NCBI GenBank assembly: GCA_019636795.1
Contig: JAHBWW010000004.1
Span: 124,001 to 188,000, forward strand
From: Phycisphaeraceae bacterium
GTDB taxonomy: Bacteria > Planctomycetota > Phycisphaerae > Phycisphaerales > UBA1924
Direction of reading: 5' to 3'
Length of the DNA: 64,000 nucleotides
This document shows positions 9,121 to 21,955 of this stretch, one piece after another; the first letter of the stretch is position 1, and each line of letters begins with the position of its first letter. The translations under genes were made by a program, and so were the position numbers. Below the pieces are notes generated by a model. That model was not told where the DNA came from. It ran no database searches and saw nothing but the letters and a program-made list of their open reading frames with translations.

Positions 9121-9804
9121 TTACGCTGCGAGCGTGAGGCCGCTGTTACCGTCTTCGGTCTCCTGCTGGTTGCCGGTGCCGAAGAAGATGGTGCTGACGT
9201 CGCTGGGCACGCTCGACCCGCCGGCCCGGCTGGCGATGACGCGGTAGGTCGCGCTCTCGAGGCCCACGGGCAGGGCGGTATCGATGAATCGCTGCACTTC
9301 GCTGGTGCCGATGAGTGTCCAGCCGCTGACGGGCTGAGTGGGGGCGGTGGTGCGGCGTGCGATGTTGAATGAAGTTCCGCCCTTGCGGGTGCACTTCCAG
9401 GTCAGCACCACCTGGCCCGCGGTGTTGAGGCGCGAGTTCAGATCGGTGGGCGTCGGCGGCGGGCCGAGCGGCGAGGGGTCGGCGGGCGGAGGGACCGAGG
9501 CCTGGGCGTAGATGGATGGGTCGTTGTTGATTTCGGCTCCGGCCTTGATGAGTGTGATCATGTCACCGCCAAAGGCACGAAGCAGATCGGCGTGCTGATG
9601 GAAGAGTAATGTTGCATCCTTCGATGCTATGCGTGCTGCAATTGCGGCAGTCTGGGCATTCTGAGCTTCATTGAGCAATGTTGCAAGCTGTGTCACCTGG
9701 GCCATGGTTAAGTTGATCGCCGTTGGACTTGAAGCCCACGAGGCGATACGGGCGGCGAACCACGCAATCATTTGTTCGCGCGACTGAGGCAGGACTGTTG
9801 CCAT
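9121..9804 (-). CDS. fibronectin type III domain protein
   Basis: 227 aa. ATG at 9804 is chosen because AAGGAG sits 7 bases upstream. The N-terminal 110 residues are alanine-rich and helical. A proline-rich linker (PPPADPSPLGPPPTPTD) then leads to one FN3-like domain with VVLTWKC, a central IARR strand and the closing YRVIASRAGG, followed by FFGTG. There is no signal peptide. The FN3 unit is related in pattern to the C-terminal domain of the HTH-HNH-AP2 protein at 19371-21494 and to the truncated fragment at 63568-63714, so it seems to be a mobile or often copied module. Function unknown. Confidence 0.7.
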   Translation of the reverse strand: MATVLPQSREQMIAWFAARIASWASSPTAINLTMAQVTQLATLLNEAQNAQTAAIAARIASKDATLLFHQHADLLRAFGGDMITLIKAGAEINNDPSIYAQASVPPPADPSPLGPPPTPTDLNSRLNTAGQVVLTWKCTRKGGTSFNIARRTTAPTQPVSGWTLIGTSEVQRFIDTALPVGLESATYRVIASRAGGSSVPSDVSTIFFGTGNQQETEDGNSGLTLAA

Positions 9805-10113
9805 AATAAAGCTCCTTCTGCGGCTCAGCGCAGAGTTGTCTTCGACAGGGCGCTGCGGCTGATGCCACATTCAAGACGCCCTGCCAATGTTGGAAGTGTG
9901 ATCGACGCATGCGGTCGGTGAATGAAATGGAATCTTCAAATTGTTGAAGTTTTTTTCATCGCCCCTGCTCAAAGGCATAGAGAAGGAGGATCGCGGCCCA
10001 TGACAAACCCGCAATGTGGGGGGAATCCTGTCGAAGTGGCACAACCGGGCGGGCTCATTCATAACGGAGCCATCGCTCCGCTGTCAGGTTCGTGACGTGC
10101 GAGTCCTGCCGAC
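9805..10113. other. intergenic region, about 310 bp
   Basis: No gene is supported here. A short palindrome (CTTCAA, 4-base loop, TTGAAG at 9934-9949) followed by a run of T on the + strand could be a weak terminator or an operator, but no + strand gene precedes it. A second small hairpin (CGGAGC/GCTCCG, 10065-10080) could end the small minus-strand gene at 10114-10242. Confidence 0.35.
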
Positions 10114-10425: not shown

Positions 10426-13293
10426 GTTGCGGGTTGCTCGCGGGCTGCGATCGATTACACTGCCTTTTCCTCTCGCGCCCTACCTCACTATGTTGCGGGT
10501 TGCTCGCGGGCTGCGATCGATTACACTTGCGGCCGCGATGGCCGCCGCGATCGAGCCGTTGCGGGTTGCTCGCGGGCTGCGATCGATTACACTGACCGCG
10601 GGCACGGGCCGCGTGCGCAGGCCGTTGCGGGTTGCTCGCGGGCTGCGATCGATTACACTAGCCATGGCGTGCTTATCATCGGCGCCTTTGTTGCGGGTTG
10701 CTCGCGGGCTGCGATCGATTACACTACGACGCGCAGCGTGTACGTGACATCGATCGTTGCGGGTTGCTCGCGGGCTGCGATCGATTACACTGACCGCGGG
10801 CACGGGCCGCGTGCGCAGGCCGTTGCGGGTTGCTCGCGGGCTGCGATCGATTACACTGCGGCCGCGATCGAGAGAGGAATCGTTCAGTTGCGGGTTGCTC
10901 GCGGGCTGCGATCGATTACACTGATTGAACCCGCTGTTGCCGTTCCATGCCCGTTGCGGGTTGCTCGCGGGCTGCGATCGATTACACTGCCTTTTCCTCT
11001 CGCGCCCTACCTCTCCATGTTGCGGGTTGCTCGCGGGCTGCGATCGATTACACTTGCCTCACGCAGGCGTGTGCGATTCTGCAGTTGCGGGTTGCTCGCG
11101 GGCTGCGATCGATTACACTGCGCGCGAACGTGATCACCGGCGTGCGGCTGTTGCGGGTTGCTCGCGGGCTGCGATCGATTACACTGGCCTTGCGGAGATT
11201 CACCTGTCGGTCATAGTTGCGGGTTGCTCGCGGGCTGCGATCGATTACACTGTTCGAGCGCAGCGGCGCGCCGTTGCTCATGTTGCGGGTTGCTCGCGGG
11301 CTGCGATCGATTACACTGGCCGAACTGTGGTATCTTCTTTGCCACTTGTTGCGGGTTGCTCGCGGGCTGCGATCGATTACACTGCTGAGTTCCGGCGCCA
11401 ACGTCGATTATCTGTTGCGGGTTGCTCGCGGGCTGCGATCGATTACACTGTCTGATCACACCCTGCCCTCCCCTTCCCCGTTGCGGGTTGCTCGCGGGCT
11501 GCGATCGATTACACTCCATGCCGACGACAGGCGCGACGAACTGCCGTTGCGGGTTGCTCGCGGGCTGCGATCGATTACACTGGAACGCGGCCGGCCAAGT
11601 GTGCGCCGTTTGTTGCGGGTTGCTCGCGGGCTGCGATCGATTACACTTGACACCATGCGGGCCACGATGATCGGCTGTTGCGGGTTGCTCGCGGGCTGCG
11701 ATCGATTACACTTGCTCTTCGATCGTGCGGCGGATCTTCGCTGTTGCGGGTTGCTCGCGGGCTGCGATCGATTACACTCTCGTTCGTCGTACCATGCGTG
11801 AGGTGCTGTTGCGGGTTGCTCGCGGGCTGCGATCGATTACACTGAGGCGCGGCGGTTCCTTGCAATCCTGCCCGTTGCGGGTTGCTCGCGGGCTGCGATC
11901 GATTACACTGCAGCACGCGGCCGCGAACCTGATGCGAGCGTTGCGGGTTGCTCGCGGGCTGCGATCGATTACACTGTCCGAGGCGATACAGCCACACATC
12001 ATTCCGTTGCGGGTTGCTCGCGGGCTGCGATCGATTACACTATACGCCGAAAACATGCGTTGTGCGTTGTGTTGCGGGTTGCTCGCGGGCTGCGATCGAT
12101 TACACTGCTGCGGTTCGTCAAGACCGACGCGAGCAAGTTGCGGGTTGCTCGCGGGCTGCGATCGATTACACTCCTGCCCCGCGTCGGGCGTCGCGTCCGC
12201 GTGTTGCGGGTTGCTCGCGGGCTGCGATCGATTACACTGCAGTCAGTGTGGGCTACACCACGCGCGAGTTGCGGGTTGCTCGCGGGCTGCGATCGATTAC
12301 ACTCGACGACGCGATTGCGTCCGCGTGGCACTGTTGCGGGTTGCTCGCGGGCTGCGATCGATTACACTTATGAGCACCACGAGCACCACGAGCACCATGT
12401 TGCGGGTTGCTCGCGGGCTGCGATCGATTACACTCTGGGCTTGGTCTCTGTGTTGGTGTTCCATGTTGCGGGTTGCTCGCGGGCTGCGATCGATTACACT
12501 GAGACGCGTGATGAGCGTGATGAGCGCGACGTTGCGGGTTGCTCGCGGGCTGCGATCGATTACACTACCCGCGCCGCGCTCCGCGCTTGACCGACTGTTG
12601 CGGGTTGCTCGCGGGCTGCGATCGATTACACTGCGAATGCCGCGCTCACGCGCCCGCCGCACGTTGCGGGTTGCTCGCGGGCTGCGATCGATTACACTAG
12701 CGCGGCCAGCGCGCCCTCATCGCCCCGGGGTTGCGGGTTGCTCGCGGGCTGCGATCGATTACACTCATCACGTCTTTGACACAACTGGCGTCGTGGTTGC
12801 GGGTTGCTCGCGGGCTGCGATCGATTACACTCGTGCCGTCGGCCTTGTTGGGCAGCAGGATGTTGCGGGTTGCTCGCGGGCTGCGATCGATTACACTCTT
12901 CGCAGCCGACTGGCTCGAAGGACTCATGTTGCGGGTTGCTCGCGGGCTGCGATCGATTACACTGCCAACGCGCGTGCGATCTGATGGGCGTCGGTTGCGG
13001 GTTGCTCGCGGGCTGCGATCGATTACACTTCCAGCCACGCGCTGGGTCGCGACCTCATCGTTGCGGGTTGCTCGCGGGCTGCGATCGATTACACTTGGGC
13101 AATCCAGACCCAATCAAGCCACCCCGTTGCGGGTTGCTCGCGGGCTGCGATCGATTACACTTGGTCGCGGGCCCGATCTCGATCTCGGTCAGTTGCGGGT
13201 TGCTCGCGGGCTGCGATCGATTACACTGATTCGACGCTGAACGAGCGAACGATCGCAGTTGCGGGTTGCTCGCGGGCTGCGATCGATTACACT
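10426..13293 (+). CRISPR. CRISPR array: 44 repeats, 43 spacers (type II)
   Basis: 44 copies of a 36-bp repeat, apparently all identical, beginning GTTGCGGGTTGC and ending GATCGATTACACT. Spacers: 35 of 30 nt, seven of 29 nt (numbers 7, 10, 19, 21, 25, 28, 29) and one of 31 nt (number 35). Transcription is on the + strand because the tracrRNA anti-repeat at 18983-19017 is complementary to this strand of the repeat. The repeat ends in TACACT, a -10-like hexamer, with TTGCTC 16 bases before it, so each repeat may carry its own promoter as in neisserial II-C arrays. Spacer 3 (10594-10623) and spacer 6 (10792-10821) are identical. Spacers 1 (10462-10491) and 9 (10989-11018) match at 28 of 30 positions. 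The absence of a degenerate terminal repeat suggests an active, well-maintained array. Confidence 0.99.
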
Positions 13294-13342
13294 AGACCCG
13301 CCGCAAATATCGCCCTGACAGGCACTTGCACGCGAGTCGCCG

Positions 13343-13672
13343 TCAGAAAAGTTCCAGTTGAGCCGGGGCCGGCTCTGGTTTCTGTCGCTTTTTTCCCCAA
13401 AATACTCGCATCCTCTCGAACTGCTTGTCCGTGATCGTGATGACCCGCACTTCCCCATCGGGCGGCACCGCTGCCTCGACCCGTTTCATGTGGACTTCCG
13501 CGTTTTCGCGGCTGGCTGCATGACGAATGTACACGCTGAACTGCATCATGGCAAACCCATTCTTGAGCAAGGCTTTGCGAAACTGCGCATACTCCTTGCG
13601 AGCCTTCTTCGAGTCCACCGGCAGGTCAAACATTGCCACTACCCACATGAATCGGTACCCGCTCAGGTGCAT
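13343..13672 (-). CDS. cas2: CRISPR-associated endonuclease Cas2
   Basis: 109 aa, normal Cas2 length. Ferredoxin-like fold with MWVVAMFDLPV (Asp16, the conserved metal-site acid), the FRKALLKNGFAMMQFSVYIRH segment, and VITITDKQFERM near the end. With Cas1 it captures and integrates new spacers. Its start overlaps the end of cas1 by 10 bases, so the two are co-translated. It is the last gene of the minus-strand cas operon, 49 bases from the distal end of the array, and converges with the + strand array transcript. Confidence 0.97.
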   Translation of the reverse strand: MHLSGYRFMWVVAMFDLPVDSKKARKEYAQFRKALLKNGFAMMQFSVYIRHAASRENAEVHMKRVEAAVPPDGEVRVITITDKQFERMRVFWGKKRQKPEPAPAQLELF

Positions 13673-14772
13673 GGCCGGTCATCCTCGACTTCCGGCGGTT
13701 TCTGCCCGGTCTGGCTTCGACGGCGGGACTCGTGCCACCCTTCCGGGCGTTCTTCGTTGGTGCCGATGAGTGTGGATAACTCCGGATCATCATCGAATTC
13801 CGTCAGCCTTTCATCGCCTGTCTGGCCGTACCACGGCACGGGCACCTCGAGCGCATCCTGCTCGCCCAGCAGCACGCGGACGAACGACGCGATATATCGA
13901 CCGATGGCAACCTGTGCCGGCCCGAAGCCGTCGCCGACGCGGACCGGGGCCGAGAGTTGCAACAGCAGTTCGGCCTTGGTGGGCTGATCGAGCCCGAGCG
14001 CGCCGCGCTGGGCCAGCGCCCGCACCTTCCAGTCGATCATCGGCCGCAGAGGTTCGACAAGGTCGTCGGCCAGGCAGAACGGGTTGTCGCGGCGTCGGTG
14101 CTTGATGCCCAGAGCGGGCAGGAGTCCGGCGGCGATGATGGCTCGCGCGACGGCCGCCCGCAGCACCGCGTAGCCGTAATCGAGCAGGTTGTTGGGCGGG
14201 GCCGCGTCGCGGTCGCCGGGCCTGCGGCGGAAGGGCTGGCCCACGCGCTCGATACCCGCAAACAAGGCGGGCCAGTAGCGCTGGGCAGCGGTGGCTTCGG
14301 CGTTGTCGGGGTCGCCGCTGCGTACGCGGGCGGCCAGGGCCCGCAGCCGCGACTGCGACGCCGGATCGTGCGACAGATTCTCGGCCTGAGCCTTGATTTT
14401 GGCGGTGACGATGGCCTGCCACAGGCGCTTGAGGCACGGCTTGCTTGCGCTCAACTGGGCGTCGAGCCGATCGAGCAGTTGCGTGTTGGTGCTCAGCGGC
14501 AGGTACAAGCCGCAGGGCTGATGATCGCGGCCGCACACAACCAGGGCTGAGCCGTGCTCGGCGAGTTTGACCAGCGCTGCGTGCGAATAGGTCGTGTCGC
14601 GTTCATCGACGACCAGCACGCCCAGATCCTCGATCGGGATCGAGCCCGCGAGGTTGGCCGGGCGTGCGGGCAGTCGCTGCGGCTCGCGCTCGCAGCGCAG
14701 GATGAGCAGTTGCTCATCGCGCGTAGCGAGGTGGGCGGGCTCACGGCTGATCTCGACGGTGCGGCGGATCAC
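13663..14772 (-). CDS. cas1: CRISPR-associated endonuclease Cas1 (type II)
   Basis: 369 aa from a GTG start at 14772, chosen because GGAGG lies 4 bases before it and the product then begins VIRRTVEIS, the usual type II Cas1 N-terminus. Catalytic residues are present: Glu159 in DPDNAEATAAQRYW, His225 in LGIKHRRR, and Asp236/237 in FCLADDLVEPLRP. It integrates protospacers together with Cas2. The length exceeds the typical 290-310 aa because of an acidic/basic C-terminal tail of roughly 50 residues after VPWYGQ (LTEFDDDPELSTLIGTNEE), which looks disordered. cas9 ends 78 bases upstream. No csn2 or cas4 is present. Confidence 0.97.
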   Translation of the reverse strand: MIRRTVEISREPAHLATRDEQLLILRCEREPQRLPARPANLAGSIPIEDLGVLVVDERDTTYSHAALVKLAEHGSALVVCGRDHQPCGLYLPLSTNTQLLDRLDAQLSASKPCLKRLWQAIVTAKIKAQAENLSHDPASQSRLRALAARVRSGDPDNAEATAAQRYWPALFAGIERVGQPFRRRPGDRDAAPPNNLLDYGYAVLRAAVARAIIAAGLLPALGIKHRRRDNPFCLADDLVEPLRPMIDWKVRALAQRGALGLDQPTKAELLLQLSAPVRVGDGFGPAQVAIGRYIASFVRVLLGEQDALEVPVPWYGQTGDERLTEFDDDPELSTLIGTNEERPEGWHESRRRSQTGQKPPEVEDDRPCT

Positions 14773-14850
14773 CGGTCCTCCAGACGGGCAGGACGGCTCA
14801 CCACAGGAGAACAAAGCGCACTGCCGCAAAGCTAGCGAAAAATATGGAAC

Positions 14851-17800
14851 TCAATCACGTTCGAGCACGGTGACCGTGCCCAGCGGGCTGATGCGAACCT
14901 TGACCGCGTGCGGATGACCGGGCGGGGCCAGGGATTTGAGGACGTTTGGTGAGACTTCAAACTGTTCTCTGACAGAGTCGCTGACCTTTCTGCCCTCTGA
15001 GTCCTTTCTGCCGGTGGCGGCTCTCGCATCCCAGTGTGGCACCAGAATGATTCTGCTCGTGCCGAAAATCATGGCAACCACGAAGTATCCTGGAATTCCT
15101 GAGGTTTTGTCTGCCATGTACAGCGTTTCACCCTCACTCAGGCTCATCAGGAACGCGCCGCCCTTCTTGTCGTTGTCGCGACGATCGACGATCGGGTGGG
15201 CCTGCTCAATTTGACGGATAATGGGTCGCCAGCGATTCTTTTCGGCAGCAGGCAAATCGCGATAAACCTTTGGCTTGGGCACACCCGCCGCGCGAAAGGC
15301 TCCCAAACGAGCGAGATTGCGCTGCGCTGCTTCAAAGGCTGACACAATTTCGCCAGTCCACACCGCCTGCCCCGTCTTGTCGGGTGCGACGCGGATCTCA
15401 ACATGATGGTTGTTGCCACCAAGATATGCACGCTTTGATGCGGGGTCGTCATCGCGAATCATGCGACCAGTAGAGTAATCCATCTTCTTACGGTCAATGA
15501 GCACCGGGTCGGACATGGTGCGCAACAGGACGACGGACTTGATGGGCACGCCCGATGCGTGGCGAATCTTGCCCGCCTCGACCAGCTTTTTGAGTTCGTT
15601 AGCCTTGAAGTTGTCGGGATCGAGGCCGTTCTCATAAAGGCACAGGCGCAAGCGGCGACGCAGATCAGCATCGCGCACGATTCCGCTGATCTCAGGCGGG
15701 GGGTCAATCGTTGCTGGCGTATATGCGGGGGACTTGATCAACTCGCGAGCCCATTTGCGGGCAGCTTTCGCTTCAATGCCCTTTTCCTTGATGCGGCGGT
15801 CGGCTAACCGATCGATGGCCTCCTTGGAATTTTCCAAGCGAGGGAGCCGCAAATGGTTTGGTGTCAGTGCCAACACACTTTTCTTGGCCGTGTACAAATT
15901 GGTCAGGTTTCCTTCTCGATCCAGGACCGGCCCATGGAGCGTCTTCTGATGCAGCGCCCCGATGAGTTTGCGCTTTACTGGCCGGTGGCACACCGGCACG
16001 ATCGAGCCGCGCTCGCCATAGACCGATTCCTCGACAGCCGCGCGGAACGCGTCGCGCGACGTGAACGGAGCGGGCACTGGCAGCGGGTTGGCCCGACGGT
16101 AGTTGGCCATCTGTTCTTCGTCGGCCGTGTTGATGCCGTCGATGTCGGCCTGCTTTTCTCGAGCGTCCCACGCCCGCTGGATCTCGGGCGTGCACAGCGC
16201 AATGACGATCGCATCGATCGCGTGGTGGCGGTGATCGCCGCGATCCTTCTCCTGGCGGATGTGCTTTTCCGTGTCGCTCAGATCATGGGACCGCTTGTCG
16301 TGCGGATCGAAAAACAGGCCCCATTCGCGGCGAAGCCGGCTTGTCCACAGGCCATCGGTCGCGTAGATGCGGCGCGTGCCGCCGCGTTCGGGCAGGCCGG
16401 TGCCGTCATAGAGCGCGTCAGCCAGATACGCCATGACCTGCCGCGCGGCGTACTTGGTCGCGGCCTCCTGCCGGTTGGTCATGTCCTGAATGTCTTTGAT
16501 GTCCTTCTTGAACTGCTCGAGTTTGGCGCGGTCCTCGCGCTCGATGAAGTACGCGCTCCACAGCGGCTCACCGGTGGCGCTCTTGAGCTCCGACGGCTTA
16601 GGCCGCGCGCGATCCACATAGATCCCTTCAACGAAGCGCAGACCTTCATCAAAACCGCCGGGCAACTTCTCGTTGAAATACTGCCGCGGCGTGCGGCGAC
16701 CCATCTCCCGATTGCACTTGGTGTGCGACAGGACGATGTTCGACAGGCCGTTGTGTCCGCCACTGGCGCGGGGGATGATGTGCGCGACTTCGCAGCCTTC
16801 TCCGTTTGCCGCGTTTCTGGTCGTCAATCCGCCCTGCCCGCACAACGGGCAGACACCGCCCTGCTGCACGCACAGGATGACGCGATCGACGGCGGCCCGC
16901 TGCTGCGTGCTCGTCACGCCCGGAGCATCAAGTTTGAAGTCCCGCACAATCTCGTTGCGGATGCGGTTGCGCAGCCGGTTCTTGAAGAGCAGTTTGTCCG
17001 CGTCTTTCGCGCCCATCTTCGCTTCGCGCGCCAGTTCGATGGTGATGGTGTCGGGCTTGCGGCCGAACGCGGTCATGTACTCAACAAGGTGCCGCCGCAC
17101 TTCGTGGATCGCCTTGCGCACGACCGGGTTCGAGATGAGCGGCGCGGGCGGCGGCTCGGCGAGGGGGTGGCCATCGGGGCCGATGACCGCCGAGCCGTCG
17201 GGCTTGCGCAGGGTGTGCTTGCCCATGTAATAGCGGTCACGAGCGGTCGCGCCCTTGGCCCCGGTCGCGTAGCGGCGGCGGGTCAGGTCATCGAGTTTCC
17301 GCCCGCTCTGCACGTCAAGAGAATCGTCATCGGCCGCGATCACTTTGCGGACCTCGATCTGGGTGATCCAACGCGCTGTCCCTGCTTCATCGGTCCACGC
17401 CTGCTCCATCACACTCAGGATGTTGCGCACCGCGCGGCGGCTCATGTTCAGGCGCCTGGCATCGGGTCGCGGGCGCGTCTTCCACGCTTCGATGAGTCGA
17501 TCAGCACGCTCTTCGTCGAGGCCGCCCCATGACATGACTCCTGCCTTGAGTTTCTTCGCGTCGTCTGGTTCATCGGGATCGAAGCGCAGGATCGCGCGAT
17601 TGAAGCCATCCTTCATGCGCTCGCTCATCGCGTCCCACGCTTCAGCCCCGATCGCCCCGTGCACGATCTCGCGGCTGAACCAGTCGGTGTTGATCGTGCG
17701 GTCATCGTCGCTTTCGATGTTGAAGCGGTAGTGCGAGGTTTTGCTTGCGCGTCCCCAGCCTTCGGCGCTGGTTCCCATCAGGTTGCGCAGGTCCGTCACG

Positions 17801-18906
17801 CTGACCGTGCGTTTGGGTCGCTCGGGCGTGATCTTAACTTCACCCGTCTTGCGGTCCTTCTTTTCTGACGCCGCAATCATGCCCAGAGGCCCACTCAGGT
17901 ACGCGATGATCTTTTCGCGCTCGTCGGGCGTGAGCGGGCGTGCGGATTGGCCGCGTTCGATGATGCGCAGGTTGTTGACCGTCTCGATGACCAGAAAGCG
18001 GCTGGCGTAGCGGTCGGCGTGCGCGATGCAGCGCTCTTCGGGGTGCAGCACGCAGCGGCCCAGCGTGCCCAGATCCCACGTCGCGCGGCGCTGGCCGAAG
18101 AGCAGACCCTTGTGTTTCCACACACTGTCGCCCTGTTCGTTGTCGAGCAGTTCACAGAGTGTGCCGGTGAGCAGTGGGGCGAGCGCACCGCCGAACTTTT
18201 TCTGTGCAGTCCAGAGATGTTTGAACTCATCGCGGATCATCGGGCGATCGGCGCAGCGCTCGTAACTGCCCGCCTTGTTGCGTACAGGGTTGCAATACTC
18301 GCGTGGGCCGCCTTTGGCGCCGGTAGTTCGCCCGTTGCTTGCTTGAATCGGCGTTCGACGCTCATCGCGCAGCATCGCGATGAACTCGCCAAAAGTCCGG
18401 ACCTTGCGCACAATCATCTCGGCCCGCACGGCACCGATGGCAGCCTTGACTTTGCCGTCTTCGCTCTCGCTCGCTTCCTCGCCGTCTTCCGGGTCCGCGA
18501 TGGACAGGCCGAGGGCACCGCGTCGCTGCGCCAGATGCAGCAGTACGCGTCCGAACTCATATGGCGAGAGAGCCTCGCTCAAGCCGCGGCGGCGCAAGTC
18601 CCACGGGTCGGTGGTTTCAAGGAGTTTCTTGAACTCTTCTTTCGTGGGCGGCAGCAGATCCGCGTCGATCAGGGCCAGACGCAGTTCGCGTTTGCGCTGG
18701 GCGCGGCGGGCGAGCGTGATGCGCGTGCGGCGTGCATTGCGGCGATTGGCGTTCTTCGGGTCGCCGCGCTTGTCGTCGGTCTCATCAACCCCGGCGGGGA
18801 AGATGGAGATGCCGCGCGTGATGGTGCCGGTCTTCGCGTCGATCCACGCGGACCCGACGGAGTTGGACCCGATGTCGAGGCCGAGGACGGTTGTTTGTTG
18901 GGGCAT
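14851..18906 (-). CDS. cas9: CRISPR RNA-guided endonuclease Cas9 (long, II-C-like locus)
   Basis: 1351 aa. RuvC-I is GLDIGSNSVGSAW (Asp11). An arginine-rich bridge helix follows (NANRRNARRTRITLARRAQR). RuvC-II is ITIELAREAKM (Glu624). The HNH domain is zinc-stabilised (CPLC ... C) with His709 in CEVAHIIPR and asparagines in LSNIVL and CNREMG. RuvC-III is DHRHHAIDAIVIAL (His895, Asp898). Both nuclease sites look intact, but the residue before the HNH histidine is Ala708 where most Cas9 proteins have Asp. Start ATG at 18906 follows AAGGAG. The protein is larger than most II-C Cas9 (about 1000-1100 aa); the extra length is in the recognition lobe and C-terminal PAM-interacting half. It is the first gene of the cas9-cas1-cas2 operon, divergent from the tracrRNA. 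Confidence 0.98.
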   Translation of the reverse strand: MPQQTTVLGLDIGSNSVGSAWIDAKTGTITRGISIFPAGVDETDDKRGDPKNANRRNARRTRITLARRAQRKRELRLALIDADLLPPTKEEFKKLLETTDPWDLRRRGLSEALSPYEFGRVLLHLAQRRGALGLSIADPEDGEEASESEDGKVKAAIGAVRAEMIVRKVRTFGEFIAMLRDERRTPIQASNGRTTGAKGGPREYCNPVRNKAGSYERCADRPMIRDEFKHLWTAQKKFGGALAPLLTGTLCELLDNEQGDSVWKHKGLLFGQRRATWDLGTLGRCVLHPEERCIAHADRYASRFLVIETVNNLRIIERGQSARPLTPDEREKIIAYLSGPLGMIAASEKKDRKTGEVKITPERPKRTVSVTDLRNLMGTSAEGWGRASKTSHYRFNIESDDDRTINTDWFSREIVHGAIGAEAWDAMSERMKDGFNRAILRFDPDEPDDAKKLKAGVMSWGGLDEERADRLIEAWKTRPRPDARRLNMSRRAVRNILSVMEQAWTDEAGTARWITQIEVRKVIAADDDSLDVQSGRKLDDLTRRRYATGAKGATARDRYYMGKHTLRKPDGSAVIGPDGHPLAEPPPAPLISNPVVRKAIHEVRRHLVEYMTAFGRKPDTITIELAREAKMGAKDADKLLFKNRLRNRIRNEIVRDFKLDAPGVTSTQQRAAVDRVILCVQQGGVCPLCGQGGLTTRNAANGEGCEVAHIIPRASGGHNGLSNIVLSHTKCNREMGRRTPRQYFNEKLPGGFDEGLRFVEGIYVDRARPKPSELKSATGEPLWSAYFIEREDRAKLEQFKKDIKDIQDMTNRQEAATKYAARQVMAYLADALYDGTGLPERGGTRRIYATDGLWTSRLRREWGLFFDPHDKRSHDLSDTEKHIRQEKDRGDHRHHAIDAIVIALCTPEIQRAWDAREKQADIDGINTADEEQMANYRRANPLPVPAPFTSRDAFRAAVEESVYGERGSIVPVCHRPVKRKLIGALHQKTLHGPVLDREGNLTNLYTAKKSVLALTPNHLRLPRLENSKEAIDRLADRRIKEKGIEAKAARKWARELIKSPAYTPATIDPPPEISGIVRDADLRRRLRLCLYENGLDPDNFKANELKKLVEAGKIRHASGVPIKSVVLLRTMSDPVLIDRKKMDYSTGRMIRDDDPASKRAYLGGNNHHVEIRVAPDKTGQAVWTGEIVSAFEAAQRNLARLGAFRAAGVPKPKVYRDLPAAEKNRWRPIIRQIEQAHPIVDRRDNDKKGGAFLMSLSEGETLYMADKTSGIPGYFVVAMIFGTSRIILVPHWDARAATGRKDSEGRKVSDSVREQFEVSPNVLKSLAPPGHPHAVKVRISPLGTVTVLERD

Positions 18907-18947
18907 GCGGTGTCTCCTTGACGATCAGTTCCCTGACAATCACATTC

Positions 18948-18976
18948 TTGACAGGCAATGTATAGGCCGTTATACT
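18948..18976 (+). promoter_or_regulatory. sigma-70-type promoter of the tracrRNA
   Basis: TTGACA at 18948-18953, a 17-base spacer, and TATACT at 18971-18976. This near-consensus promoter predicts a start close to 18983, exactly where the anti-repeat begins. Confidence 0.85.
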
Positions 18977-18982
18977 TCCGTC

Positions 18983-19100
18983 AGTGTAATCGATCGCGGC
19001 CCGCGGTTTCACGCAACAAGAGAAATCGCAGGCACCGCCCCCTGGTCAAACAGGGTGCGACCGCCGCAGCCCGAGTCACCCTCGGCCTTCGGCTTTTTTT
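18983..19100 (+). ncRNA. tracrRNA
   Basis: About 118 nt. The 5' end is an anti-repeat (18983-19017). Its first 15 bases, AGTGTAATCGATCGC, pair perfectly with the repeat 3' half. One G-U pair follows, then GCCCGCG, an internal bulge, and CGCAAC pairing with the repeat 5' end. Downstream is a stem-loop (about 19032-19058, GCAC..CCTG/CAGG..GTGC) and a terminal hairpin with seven T residues. It guides repeat processing and docks crRNA into Cas9. Position just upstream of cas9 and divergent from it is common in type II systems. The anti-repeat orientation fixes the array as + strand transcribed. Confidence 0.93.
19063..19100 (+). terminator. intrinsic terminator of the tracrRNA
   Basis: An interrupted stem is formed by GCCG/CGGC (19063-19066 with 19090-19093) and CCGAG/CTCGG (19071-19075 with 19081-19085), with a 5-base loop, followed by seven T residues (19094-19100). 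This hairpin is likely also a functional 3' stem of the tracrRNA. Confidence 0.85.
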
Positions 19101-19370: not shown

Positions 19371-21494
19371 TTACGCCGCCTTTCCCTGCCGTGTGCGTTT
19401 CCCGGCGGCTTGTCCTTCGTGCGTGTCCAGCGTGAGCACGTCGCTGACTTCGCCCTGGTCTGTGCCGCGGGAGGCTTGGATGGTGTACTGCGGGCTGGCA
19501 GCGTTGCCGAGCACGTCTGCAGTGGGGTCTGCGGTGGGGGCGGTGGGGACGGTGGCGTCGGTGAAGGTTGCGACGCGTGACTGGTGCGTGGTGCCGGCCA
19601 CCGTGCCGATGATGGCGAACTCACGCTGGCCGGGGAGCCTTCGCGACACCGTGAAGGTCACGCCCGCGCCGGCGGCCGCGTTGACGCAGCGCCACGAAAG
19701 AGTCACGCTCCCGTCGTCGTGGCGGGCGAGTGTGCACTCGCGCGGCTTGCCGGGGAGTCGCGCGGCCGAGTACGGCGCGTCCTTTGAGAGTTCGGCGGGA
19801 TTGACGGGCGCGGCCGCGCTGGGCAGTTCGCCCGCGCGCGGGAAGTTCACCCGTGCCTCTTGGCCCCAGGCCTCGCGGGCGGCGTCGTCGTACGCCAGCG
19901 CCGCATCTTCTTCGTCATCGAAATGGCCCAGCACGCGGTGCACATCGTCCACGCGGATATTCGCCGCCCACGCTTCGTCGCGCGTGGTCCAAAAGACGCC
20001 CTTGAAGCGCGAGGTGGTCGGCCGCCCCGAGCGGTGCAGGAGTTTGAACGCGGCGCGGGTGCCCTTGGCGAACGTGCTCAACACGAGGTTGGCGCGGCGG
20101 CAGTCGAGAGAGTTGCCGTTGGCGTGGACGACGTGCTCGCCGGGCCTGTCACTGGTCAGGCCCATGATCAGACGGTTGAGTTGCACGCGTTCGATGTCGC
20201 GCGGGCCGACGAGGAAGACCACGCCCTTGCCGGCCCTGTCGCCTTTACGCATGGCGAAGTTCCACTTCCTGCCCTGCACGTGGTGGAGGTCCGCCTCGTC
20301 GATGAGCGCCTCGAGGTATCCATCGAGTGTGCGCAGCGGCACGCGCCATACGCCCGCCCGCGCGGGGTGCGGATCGGGGTAGGGCTGGCCCACCTTGTCG
20401 AGTTCATCGCGCAGGCGCGTGATGTCGGCGGCGGCGTAGAAGATTGGGTTGCCGGTCGTGTCCTTGACGCGGTAGCGGGGGATGGAGATGTGCCCGGCTT
20501 TTTCCCAGCCACAGAGGGTGGTCGTGCTGATGAGCAGAATCTCGGCGGCTTCGTGACGCGAAAGCATGGGCACGCCCGGCGGGGGCGCGGGCAGCCCGCG
20601 CGGCACGCGGTACGCGTTCATCTCGCGCACGGGCTTGCCCTCGGGATCGAGGTACGTCGGCGCGGGGATGTTCCCGTCGGGGAAGTTGAGCAGGGCCGCA
20701 TCGCCGTACATCTCTCGCGCGGCGGCGTCGTAGGCCGCGGCGGCTTGCGCTTCGTCGCGGAATCGGCCGACGACGCGGTGGGTCTCGCGCGAGCCAATCT
20801 GCACCTTCCAGAGGCACCGCTGCGTATCCCATCCGACGCCCTTGTAGGCCGATGCGGCTTCGCTCCCGCCGCGACCCTTCGTTTTGGGGCGGCGGCGGAT
20901 CACTTCGGATCGGGTTGTGATGACGAGGTTGGCGCGGCGGCAGTCGAGCGGGTCGCTGTTGATGAAGTCCACGATCTGATCCCGGCATTCCGGGGCGTCC
21001 ACGCCCATGATGACGCGCTTGAGGGGGACCATGCGCTCCGTGACCGTCGAGAGGATCACGTCCAGGTCTTTGCCGCCTTTGCTGTATGAGACGTTCCAGT
21101 GCTTGCCTTCGACCTTGGGCAGATCCTCGGCATCGATGAGGGCGACGAGCCGGTACTTGTCGCTGCGGATCGGCACGCGGTAGACGCCGGGGCGCTGCGG
21201 ATCGGGATGGGGCTCTTCGAGTTTTCGCAGCTCCTCACGCAGGCGCGTCAGGTCCTCGACAGCGTACAGGACCGTGAGCCCGGGTCCCGCCGGCGCGCGG
21301 TAGCGGGGGATCGTGACGCGCCCGTCGCGCTCCCAGATCCCGAAAGTCCCGAGGCTCACGCCCATGAACGCGGCGGCCTCGGGCCGCGACAAGACGGCCA
21401 CGCCCGGGGGCGGCGGCGGGAGTTTGCCGGGCGATCGGCGCGGGCGTTTGGGCGAGTCGGGTGTGGGCGATTCTGAGGTGCGTTTGGTTCTCAT
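19371..21494 (-). CDS. tandem HTH-HNH-AP2 DNA-binding/endonuclease-like protein with FN3 tail
   Basis: 707 aa from ATG at 21494 (AAAGG upstream). The protein is a direct duplication. Copy A has a MerR/excisionase-like HTH (about 35-90, LSRPEAAAFMGVSLGTFGIW), an HNH-like region (115-195) ending LDCRRANLVI, and an AP2 domain (214-272, YKGVGWDTQRCLWKVQI). Copy B repeats this order: HTH 310-365, HNH-like 395-475, AP2 494-552. An FN3-like domain follows (585-690). In homing-type HNH enzymes the motif is DHxNGNxLDNRxxNL. Copy B keeps the histidine (VHANGNSLDCRRANL) while copy A has Phe in its place, so only copy B might cut. Bacterial AP2 domains mostly occur in such mobile HNH proteins. Possible roles are a homing-type element or a sequence-specific regulator. 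It sits beside the CRISPR locus. Confidence 0.8.
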   Translation of the reverse strand: MRTKRTSESPTPDSPKRPRRSPGKLPPPPPGVAVLSRPEAAAFMGVSLGTFGIWERDGRVTIPRYRAPAGPGLTVLYAVEDLTRLREELRKLEEPHPDPQRPGVYRVPIRSDKYRLVALIDAEDLPKVEGKHWNVSYSKGGKDLDVILSTVTERMVPLKRVIMGVDAPECRDQIVDFINSDPLDCRRANLVITTRSEVIRRRPKTKGRGGSEAASAYKGVGWDTQRCLWKVQIGSRETHRVVGRFRDEAQAAAAYDAAAREMYGDAALLNFPDGNIPAPTYLDPEGKPVREMNAYRVPRGLPAPPPGVPMLSRHEAAEILLISTTTLCGWEKAGHISIPRYRVKDTTGNPIFYAAADITRLRDELDKVGQPYPDPHPARAGVWRVPLRTLDGYLEALIDEADLHHVQGRKWNFAMRKGDRAGKGVVFLVGPRDIERVQLNRLIMGLTSDRPGEHVVHANGNSLDCRRANLVLSTFAKGTRAAFKLLHRSGRPTTSRFKGVFWTTRDEAWAANIRVDDVHRVLGHFDDEEDAALAYDDAAREAWGQEARVNFPRAGELPSAAAPVNPAELSKDAPYSAARLPGKPRECTLARHDDGSVTLSWRCVNAAAGAGVTFTVSRRLPGQREFAIIGTVAGTTHQSRVATFTDATVPTAPTADPTADVLGNAASPQYTIQASRGTDQGEVSDVLTLDTHEGQAAGKRTRQGKAA

Positions 21495-21955
21495 GACACA
21501 GTGCCTTTGGGTTTGCGGGTCCATCGTGCGTGTCGGCCATCGGCCTGCCAGAGATCACACGGCCACTGTGGCCGCGTTCGTTGCGCTCCACGGCCCGCGC
21601 GCTCCGCTGGTGCTCACCCGGCGCGCGAGGTCATGGACCTGCATGCCGCCGGTATCGTCGTGATGGAGCGATCAGCACCAGAATTCGCGTGCGTGTTCGT
21701 CGGCAACATCCCATGATTGGGCGTGGTGCGTCTCGGCCTGCTTGGTGCCCGCTTGGTGCCCGCGATTAAATGCACGAACCCGTGCCACCGTTCGCCGGTT
21801 CCTCCGGCGAGCGGTGCGGATGATCTGGGATCATCGGGCTTCGCTCTCATCGGGGGCGTGTCTCGCATGGCTGCATGCACAGGCTCTCAGGTGCGATCAG
21901 CGGCATCGGGCGAGAGTGGAATCCAGGCCGACCCTTTACTCATCTGCCGCTGGTA
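21495..21955. other. intergenic region, about 460 bp, with one copy of a structured repeat
   Basis: No convincing gene. The right part (21780-21912) is copy 1 of a repeat that recurs at 23057-23209. The left part presumably carries the promoter of the HTH-HNH-AP2 gene. Confidence 0.45.
21780..21912. repeat. structured direct repeat, copy 1
   Basis: About 133 bp, nearly identical to 23057-23209. It contains two hairpins: CCGtTCGCCGG/CCGGCGAgCGG with a 5-base loop, and GATGATC/GATCATC around TGG. The second copy carries an extra 20 bp or so. The pair brackets the two minus-strand genes at 21956-22922. Confidence 0.8.

What the first reader, a model, noticed from the sequence alone, without database searches (positions are those of the whole stretch)
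10426..19100. Complete type II CRISPR-Cas9 locus with II-C layout but an unusually long Cas9
Seen: 44 perfect repeats, cas2, cas1, a 1351-aa cas9 with all RuvC and HNH catalytic residues, and a tracrRNA; no csn2 and no cas4. Known: loci with only cas9, cas1 and cas2 are classed II-C, whose Cas9 is usually about 1000-1100 aa. Inferred: a divergent planctomycete Cas9 lineage, possibly with distinct PAM and recognition-lobe architecture.
Basis: partly seen in the sequence, partly recalled or inferred. Interest (0 to 1): 0.7.

Follow-up and report, generated by a model that had tools for sequence, protein, structure and literature searches.

The report
Long planctomycete Cas9, altered cutting site
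This is a complete bacterial CRISPR-Cas9 immune locus from a planctomycete whose unusually long Cas9 belongs to a small family that has been swapped between related bacteria and has changed two normally constant residues in one of its two DNA-cutting centres, so it may cut DNA differently from known Cas9s.

Summary
The locus is real: 44 identical 36-nt repeats, cas2, cas1, a 1351-aa cas9 and a tracrRNA with a promoter; no cas4 found, no room for csn2. By gene content it is type II-C. Length alone is not new. (1) The Cas9 lies in a strongly supported clade of long Cas9s (about 1190-1415 aa; nearest shorter relatives 1020-1123), 14 of 15 members from one planctomycete order; extra length is mainly in REC2/3 and the C-terminal third. 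(2) That clade is single on the Cas9 tree, but its Cas1 partners largely follow host taxonomy and reject being one clade. In one genus two genomes share about 89% identical flanks and cas1 around entirely different tracrRNA-cas9 cassettes. (3) 'All HNH catalytic residues' is wrong: in 19 of 19 examined close members the Mg-binding Asp/Glu before the HNH histidine is Ala and the active-site Lys is Met, while His, Asn, a likely zinc ribbon and RuvC residues remain and the HNH is under purifying selection. So either an HNH with a rebuilt metal site (favoured) or a natural nickase. Structure models were poor and no convincing protospacer was found, so the PAM is unknown.

The parts
10426..13293 (+). 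CRISPR array, 44 identical 36-nt repeats and 43 spacers; crRNA strand is + (inferred)
   Evidence: strand inferred from the repeat start GTTG and from the tracrRNA strand
13294..13342 (+). 49-bp cas2-proximal flank of the array; perhaps the side where spacers are added (inferred)
   Evidence: by eye: this flank looks alike in several of 12 loci, the distal flanks of the window and L002 do not, several distal flanks are cut by contig ends, and in L066 the distal repeat has 3 mismatches
13343..13672 (-). cas2, 109 aa
   Evidence: TIGR01573 72.9 bits
13663..14829 (-). cas1, 388 aa from the first TTG; the true start is probably further in, since most relatives are about 294-345 aa as called
   Evidence: TIGR03639 216.6 bits
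14851..18906 (-). cas9, 1351 aa
   Evidence: TIGR01865 364 bits
16672..16851 (-). HNH region (residues 686-745) with likely zinc ribbon C686, C689, H728, C731; H709 and N732 kept
16783..16785 (-). codon of A708, where the 62 other Cas9 rows have Asp or Glu (SpCas9 D839)
16702..16704 (-). codon of M735, where 61 of 62 other Cas9 rows have Lys (SpCas9 K866)
18948..18976 (+). tracrRNA promoter-like site TTGACA-17-TATACT
   Evidence: 11 of 12 matches, one found where 0.1 is expected; TTGACA near the same place in 7 of 10 loci, TTGACG in 2, a variant in 1 (read by eye)
18983..19100 (+). tracrRNA: anti-repeat, nexus hairpin, terminator hairpin and T-run; ends are predicted
   Evidence: the simple terminator scan did not list this hairpin

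Best explanation
A working type II-C CRISPR-Cas9 immune locus of a Phycisphaerales planctomycete. The tracrRNA starts at the anti-repeat from its own promoter, pairs with crRNA repeats and loads Cas9, as in other type II systems (inferred from anatomy). The Cas9 belongs to a long lineage inherited as a tracrRNA-cas9 cassette that has been exchanged between loci keeping their resident cas1-cas2 (shown by trees and by one genus-level replacement). RuvC is intact and should cut the non-target strand. The HNH most likely still cuts the target strand with a rebuilt metal site: Asn732 stays as a metal ligand, His709 as general base, the Asp ligand is lost and a nearby Arg may take over the Lys role (inferred, not tested).
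For: Gene content and family scores. tracrRNA beside cas9 in 11 of 12 long-clade loci that have an array, a shared -35 box, a strong duplex, and 19 consensus pairs of which 5 have compensatory changes. Cas9 tree: 15 long rows form one clade with 100/100 support and one long/short change, and holding host family f1 together is rejected, p-AU 4e-107. Cas1 tree: holding those 15 rows together is rejected, p-AU 5e-48, with 9 changes of long/short. G209 against G261, same genus: flank 89.2% identical over 3840 bases and cas1 side 88.8% over 1228 bases, nothing aligned across tracrRNA-cas9. HNH: H709 and N732 kept in 73 of 73 rows and in 8 of 8 further members; dN/dS 0.12, 0.22 and 0.15 in three pairs, a fourth saturated; 43% of its sites invariant in 10 core rows, the same as RuvC-III, RuvC-I and II a little higher. 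An HNH family whose residue before the histidine is not acidic exists in these genomes: Ser, Ala or Gly in 11 of 11 readable HNH_2 members, of 14 found.
Against: D839A in SpCas9 substantially compromised editing, and D839 with N863 are its modelled Mg ligands (PMC6706240, passages); a Lys/Arg in the catalytic core 'seemed to be required'. So loss of both could mean a dead HNH. HNH_2 lacks the Asn-x-x-Lys end of the Cas9 HNH, and whether its members cut DNA was not checked. No protospacer shows that the array targets anything known. No expression data. Only one exchange was seen at DNA level with both flanks preserved, and in that genome no array fitting the anti-repeat was found. The compared dS values are high, so dN/dS is rough.
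Confidence: 0.6

Rival explanations
1. Natural nickase: the HNH of the core clade is catalytically dead or very weak, kept as a zinc-stabilised checkpoint or structural domain, and only RuvC cuts, nicking the non-target strand.
For: Both the acidic Mg ligand and the active-site Lys are replaced (A708, M735) in 19 of 19 close members: 11 tree rows and 8 further relatives at 60-71% identity that were not placed in a tree. The acid is present in 62 of 62 other Cas9 rows and the Lys in 61 of 62. 14 of 14 stand-alone HNH relatives keep D-H and K. Prime editors with D839A keep the editing that needs non-target-strand cleavage (PMC10063541, passages).
Against: His709 and Asn732 are kept in all 19, and the HNH is as conserved as RuvC-III; a domain freed from catalysis would be expected to lose them.
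Confidence: 0.3
2. An ordinary II-C Cas9 with a long but otherwise unremarkable effector; the HNH changes are neutral and compensated, and all behaviour is standard.
For: Locus layout, RNA anatomy and family scores are standard.
Against: Two near-invariant active-site residues changed together throughout a clade under strong constraint do not look neutral.
Confidence: 0.08
3. A decayed or silent locus.
For: No convincing protospacer found.
Against: 44 perfect repeats and open genes, dN/dS well under 1, promoter-like site and tracrRNA shared by relatives.
Confidence: 0.02

Closest known systems
Type II-C CRISPR-Cas9 (e.g. Neisseria meningitidis; best PDB hits 6jdq and 9ar4; organism and subtype of these chains by recall)
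   Same: cas9-cas1-cas2 only, array next to cas2, tracrRNA, split RuvC around HNH, HNH His and Asn
   Different: About 260-270 aa longer than those chains (1082-1092 aa); HNH D-H-N is A-H-N, K is M, zinc ribbon; in the 60 of 75 PDB matches shown, no best stretch reaches past profile position 1025, so the C-terminal third has no seen relative by sequence
Shorter Cas9s next to it in the tree (1020-1123 aa once over-long ORF starts are trimmed)
   Same: Nearest relatives outside the long clade; related Cas1-Cas2, repeats and tracrRNA core
   Different: Standard D-H-N-K HNH, shorter REC2/3 and C-terminal region
Long Cas9s of Bacteroidota (Prevotella 1506, Phocaeicola 1504; CbCas9 1442 in the PDB)
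   Same: Long Cas9s apart from II-A in the tree
   Different: Separate branch of the tree; Glu before the HNH histidine and Lys kept in the Prevotella and Phocaeicola rows; CbCas9 itself was not in the tree
IsrB, the HNH-less IscB relative that nicks (recalled)
   Same: Would act alike if the HNH here is dead
   Different: IsrB lacks the HNH; here the domain is kept and conserved

Membership tests
Type II CRISPR-Cas | cas9 with split RuvC and an HNH, plus tracrRNA | tested here: met
Type II-C | only cas9, cas1, cas2 in the operon | tested here: met
   gaps between the genes too small for another gene
Type II-C | Cas9 groups away from II-A and II-B | tested here: inconclusive
   Away from two II-A rows at 100%; no II-B reference was in the tree
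Type II-A | csn2 | tested here: not met
   No room in the locus; genome search empty, but its control did not ring
Type II-B | cas4 | tested here: not met
   control rang in 8 of 14
Type II-D (Cas9d) | NF049971 above cut-off | tested here: not met
   118.8 bits against a cut-off of 375
Standard Cas9 HNH | D/E-H...N catalytic set with active-site Lys | tested here: not met
   A708-H709...N732, M735
Standard Cas9 RuvC | D, E, H, D | tested here: met
   D11, E624, H895, D898
Known PAM class | PAM | tested here: inconclusive
   No convincing protospacer

The most novel reading that the evidence does not exclude
A clade of natural Cas9 nickases: CRISPR immunity in which RuvC alone nicks the non-target strand while a zinc-ribbon HNH, stripped of its metal acid and lysine but still conserved, acts as a non-cutting checkpoint; the enzyme spreads as a tracrRNA-cas9 cassette onto resident adaptation genes.
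Probability: 0.3. Interest if true: 0.85.

Novelty: new variant of a known kind. Interest (0 to 1): 0.62.

Why it matters
The D-H-N set and the active-site lysine of HNH are treated as fixed in Cas9. A conserved natural clade without two of them makes it testable whether HNH can cut with another metal site, or whether Cas9 immunity can work by nicking. It would also be a source of natural nickases or of an HNH with unusual metal needs. The cassette exchange shows at DNA level, in one case, what the unit of Cas9 replacement can be: tracrRNA plus cas9, with cas1-cas2 left in place.

Tried and rejected
Structure: AlphaFold2 on residues 55-600 and 905-1351, each with only L002 as second row, gave mean pLDDT 37.9 and 46.5; not used, no fold search run. 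PAM: the whole array against phages (10 records, best E 0.9); the 42 distinct spacers against plasmids (one record, E 0.03, to the low-complexity spacer 30) and 251 genomes of the order (best outside hit again spacer 30, E 7.5e-6; next spacer 42, E 6.5e-4, 93% over 28 bases; neither followed up); the array against its own genome (itself, the anti-repeat at E 3.8e-4 and weaker hits); and 21-25 nt cores against IMG/VR (none). The IMG/VR scans were 5 patterns covering 6 of 42 distinct spacers, with 3 of 8 scans unused. Self-targeting: no full-length spacer match. Accessory gene: beyond cas1, cas2 and cas9 the clusters over 11 core loci are mostly antisense frames; one real-looking family, the window ORF 9121-9870, lies near 3 of 11 core loci (window, L060, L068) and near L070; some flanks were short. 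L071's repeat: the only match in its genome is its own anti-repeat, so whether the new cassette fits its array is open. HNH replaced whole from another protein: not supported, since L066 looks intermediate (zinc ribbon with D and K). Papers: full-text searches listed none that names this clade or a natural HNH-altered Cas9 in title or abstract start; passages were read of three papers only, and the library holds open-licence PMC papers only.

Rows dropped: L038 (partial), L075 (split) and L076 (window duplicate) were left out of the trees; loci without a cas1 hit (L086, L087) could not enter the Cas1 tree; the careful trees used 33 (Cas1) and 32 (Cas9) rows chosen from the 64 and 73. Alignment A1 leaves out L068 and L038; one search used 10 of the 11 core rows (no L068); the tracrRNA alignment used 11 rows, without L059, L063, L066 and L068. 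Several ORFs were called too long at the start; lengths were recounted.

Full report
What is there. The window holds a complete type II CRISPR-Cas locus: 44 identical 36-nt repeats at 10426-13293 with 43 spacers of 29-31 nt, cas2, cas1 and cas9 on the minus strand, and a tracrRNA on the plus strand beside the cas9 start. Spacers 3 and 6 are identical, 1 and 9 differ at 2 of 30 bases. The window is G000:C4:124001-188000 of a 3.49-Mb assembly. A named Phycisphaerales MAG carries an 82% identical Cas9; it appears to be G571, which has a contig of the same length and is listed as the same family as the window's genome. This places the host in that order.

Guide RNA. The anti-repeat at 18983-19018 pairs with the repeat at -58.8 kcal/mol against -22.4 on average for 200 shuffles. 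A TTGACA-17-TATACT site ends 6 bases before it, and a -35 box lies near the same place in relatives: TTGACA in 7 of 10 loci, TTGACG in 2, a variant in 1. Eleven aligned rows share a nexus hairpin and a terminator hairpin: 19 consensus pairs, 5 with compensatory changes; 5 of the 19 join the anti-repeat to the nexus and would compete with crRNA pairing, and the covariation term is small, -1.17. Rfam listed nothing in the window. Among 12 long-clade loci with an array, the anti-repeat was found next to cas9 in 11; in L066 the best hit was a degenerate repeat beside the array. Outside the long clade the same search also failed to point to a tracrRNA beside cas9 in some loci (for example L072, L075, L082). 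crRNA orientation, loading and processing are inferred from known type II systems.

Lineage. A tree of 73 Cas9s (940 columns) puts the window in a 15-row clade with 100% support, apart from the two II-A references and from the long Bacteroidota Cas9s. The careful tree of 32 rows gives 100/100 for the clade, 100/99 for its 11-row core, and one change of long/short. Counted from ten residues before the first RuvC Asp, members are 1186-1416 aa and the 13 shorter neighbours 1020-1123 aa; the longer ORF of L070 (1244 aa) is an over-long start. The window's REC2/3 is 281 aa (median of the 13: 194), the stretch from residue 980 to the end 372 (278), the HNH to RuvC-III part 87 (58). 14 of the 15 rows come from the window's order, L071 from its class. 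No II-B reference was in the tree. Searches beyond the phylum were limited: one scan of 84,980 species for close relatives found only L002, and plasmids gave only distant Cas9s. Inside it, 57 of 392 phylum genomes (some through the HNH alone), 28 of 251 order genomes, 22 of 163 family genomes and 8 of 51 genomes of G185's family matched at the thresholds used.

Cassette exchange. The Cas1 tree largely follows host taxonomy: window, L002, L060-L063 and L065 group within family f1; L058, L059, L066 and L069 lie with family f3, L064 with f4, L071 with f8, mixed with loci that have short Cas9s; L068 and L089 are unresolved or out of place. Holding the 15 long-Cas9 loci together on Cas1 is rejected (p-AU 5e-48; for 14 without L071 3e-46; for 10 of the core 1e-6), and long/short needs 9 changes there. 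Holding family f1 together on Cas9 is rejected too (p-AU 4e-107). The groups were named after seeing quick trees, so the p values are not strict. In one genus, G209 (long-type, 1186 aa trimmed) and G261 (1053 aa as called) share 3840 bases of flank at 89.2% identity up to just behind the tracrRNA terminator, and again 1228 bases from about the cas1 start at 88.8%; the tracrRNA-cas9 stretch between does not align. In L058 against L080 and L066 against L080, 2 of the 10 pairs compared, DNA similarity covers cas2-cas1 and stops at the cas9 end apart from a short patch within cas9; with Cas9s this different that is weak evidence by itself. So tracrRNA-cas9 can be replaced as a cassette. No array fitting L071's anti-repeat was found in G209, so whether its repeats fit is open.

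HNH. All rows keep the HNH histidine and asparagine (73 of 73), and the RuvC residues are kept in 73 of 73 rows apart from one gap at D11. In the 11 core rows the residue before the histidine is Ala (D 34 and E 28 in the 62 others) and the residue equivalent to SpCas9 K866 is Met (K in 61 of 62 others, one Q). Eight further relatives at 60-71% identity, not placed in a tree, all show Ala and Met: 19 of 19. One of them, L038, is partial and lacks the D11 end. Four rows at the base of the long clade (L066, L067, L069, L071) keep D and K. The core also has C686, C689, H728 and C731 in 11 of 11 rows, a likely zinc ribbon. Fourteen of 14 stand-alone HNH relatives keep D-H and K. The domain is not decaying: dN/dS 0.12, 0.22 and 0.15 in three pairs (a fourth was saturated), 43% of its sites invariant in 10 core rows, equal to RuvC-III. 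In SpCas9, D839 and N863 hold the Mg ion in the model, D839A substantially compromised editing, and an invariant Lys at K866 is described for II-A and II-C (PMC6706240, passages read).

Reading. Two explanations fit. HNH may still cut, with Asn as the main protein ligand, as in some other beta-beta-alpha metal nucleases (recalled). Kept His and Asn speak for this, and so does HNH_2, a family in these genomes with Ser, Ala or Gly before the histidine in 11 of 11 readable members of 14 found, though it lacks the Asn-x-x-Lys end and its activity was not checked. Or HNH is dead and the enzyme is a nickase. I give about 0.6 to the first and 0.3 to the second.

What could not be shown. No protospacer was convincing, so the PAM is unknown. 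Structure models failed. The side of spacer addition is a guess from the cas2-proximal flank and the degenerate distal repeat of L066. Searches of open papers listed no report of this clade; subscription literature was not searched. Great length variation of Cas9, 984 to 1648 aa, is in print (PMC3936727, passages).

Noticed in passing
window 19371-21524 (-): 717-aa protein with two HNH_3 stretches and a weak AP2 match just upstream of the locus, like a homing-endonuclease protein; no relative in the other loci searched.
   Followed up: partly
window 9121-9870 (-): 249-aa protein without family match; relatives lie near Cas9 loci L070, L060 and L068.
   Followed up: partly
window 12369-12398: Spacer 30 is a repeat of nine bases (GAGCACCAC) and gives the best but unconvincing outside hits.
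   Followed up: partly
L110, L112: Two other planctomycete Cas9s of about 1283 and 1342 aa (trimmed) that are not in the long clade: length was probably gained more than once.
   Followed up: no
L059 and L073 (same genome G111): One genome carries both a long-Cas9 and a short-Cas9 type II locus on different contigs.
   Followed up: partly
L169, L173, L174 (genome G677): A Cas9 of the core kind matched in three pieces, with extra sequence in the C-terminal half.
   Followed up: no
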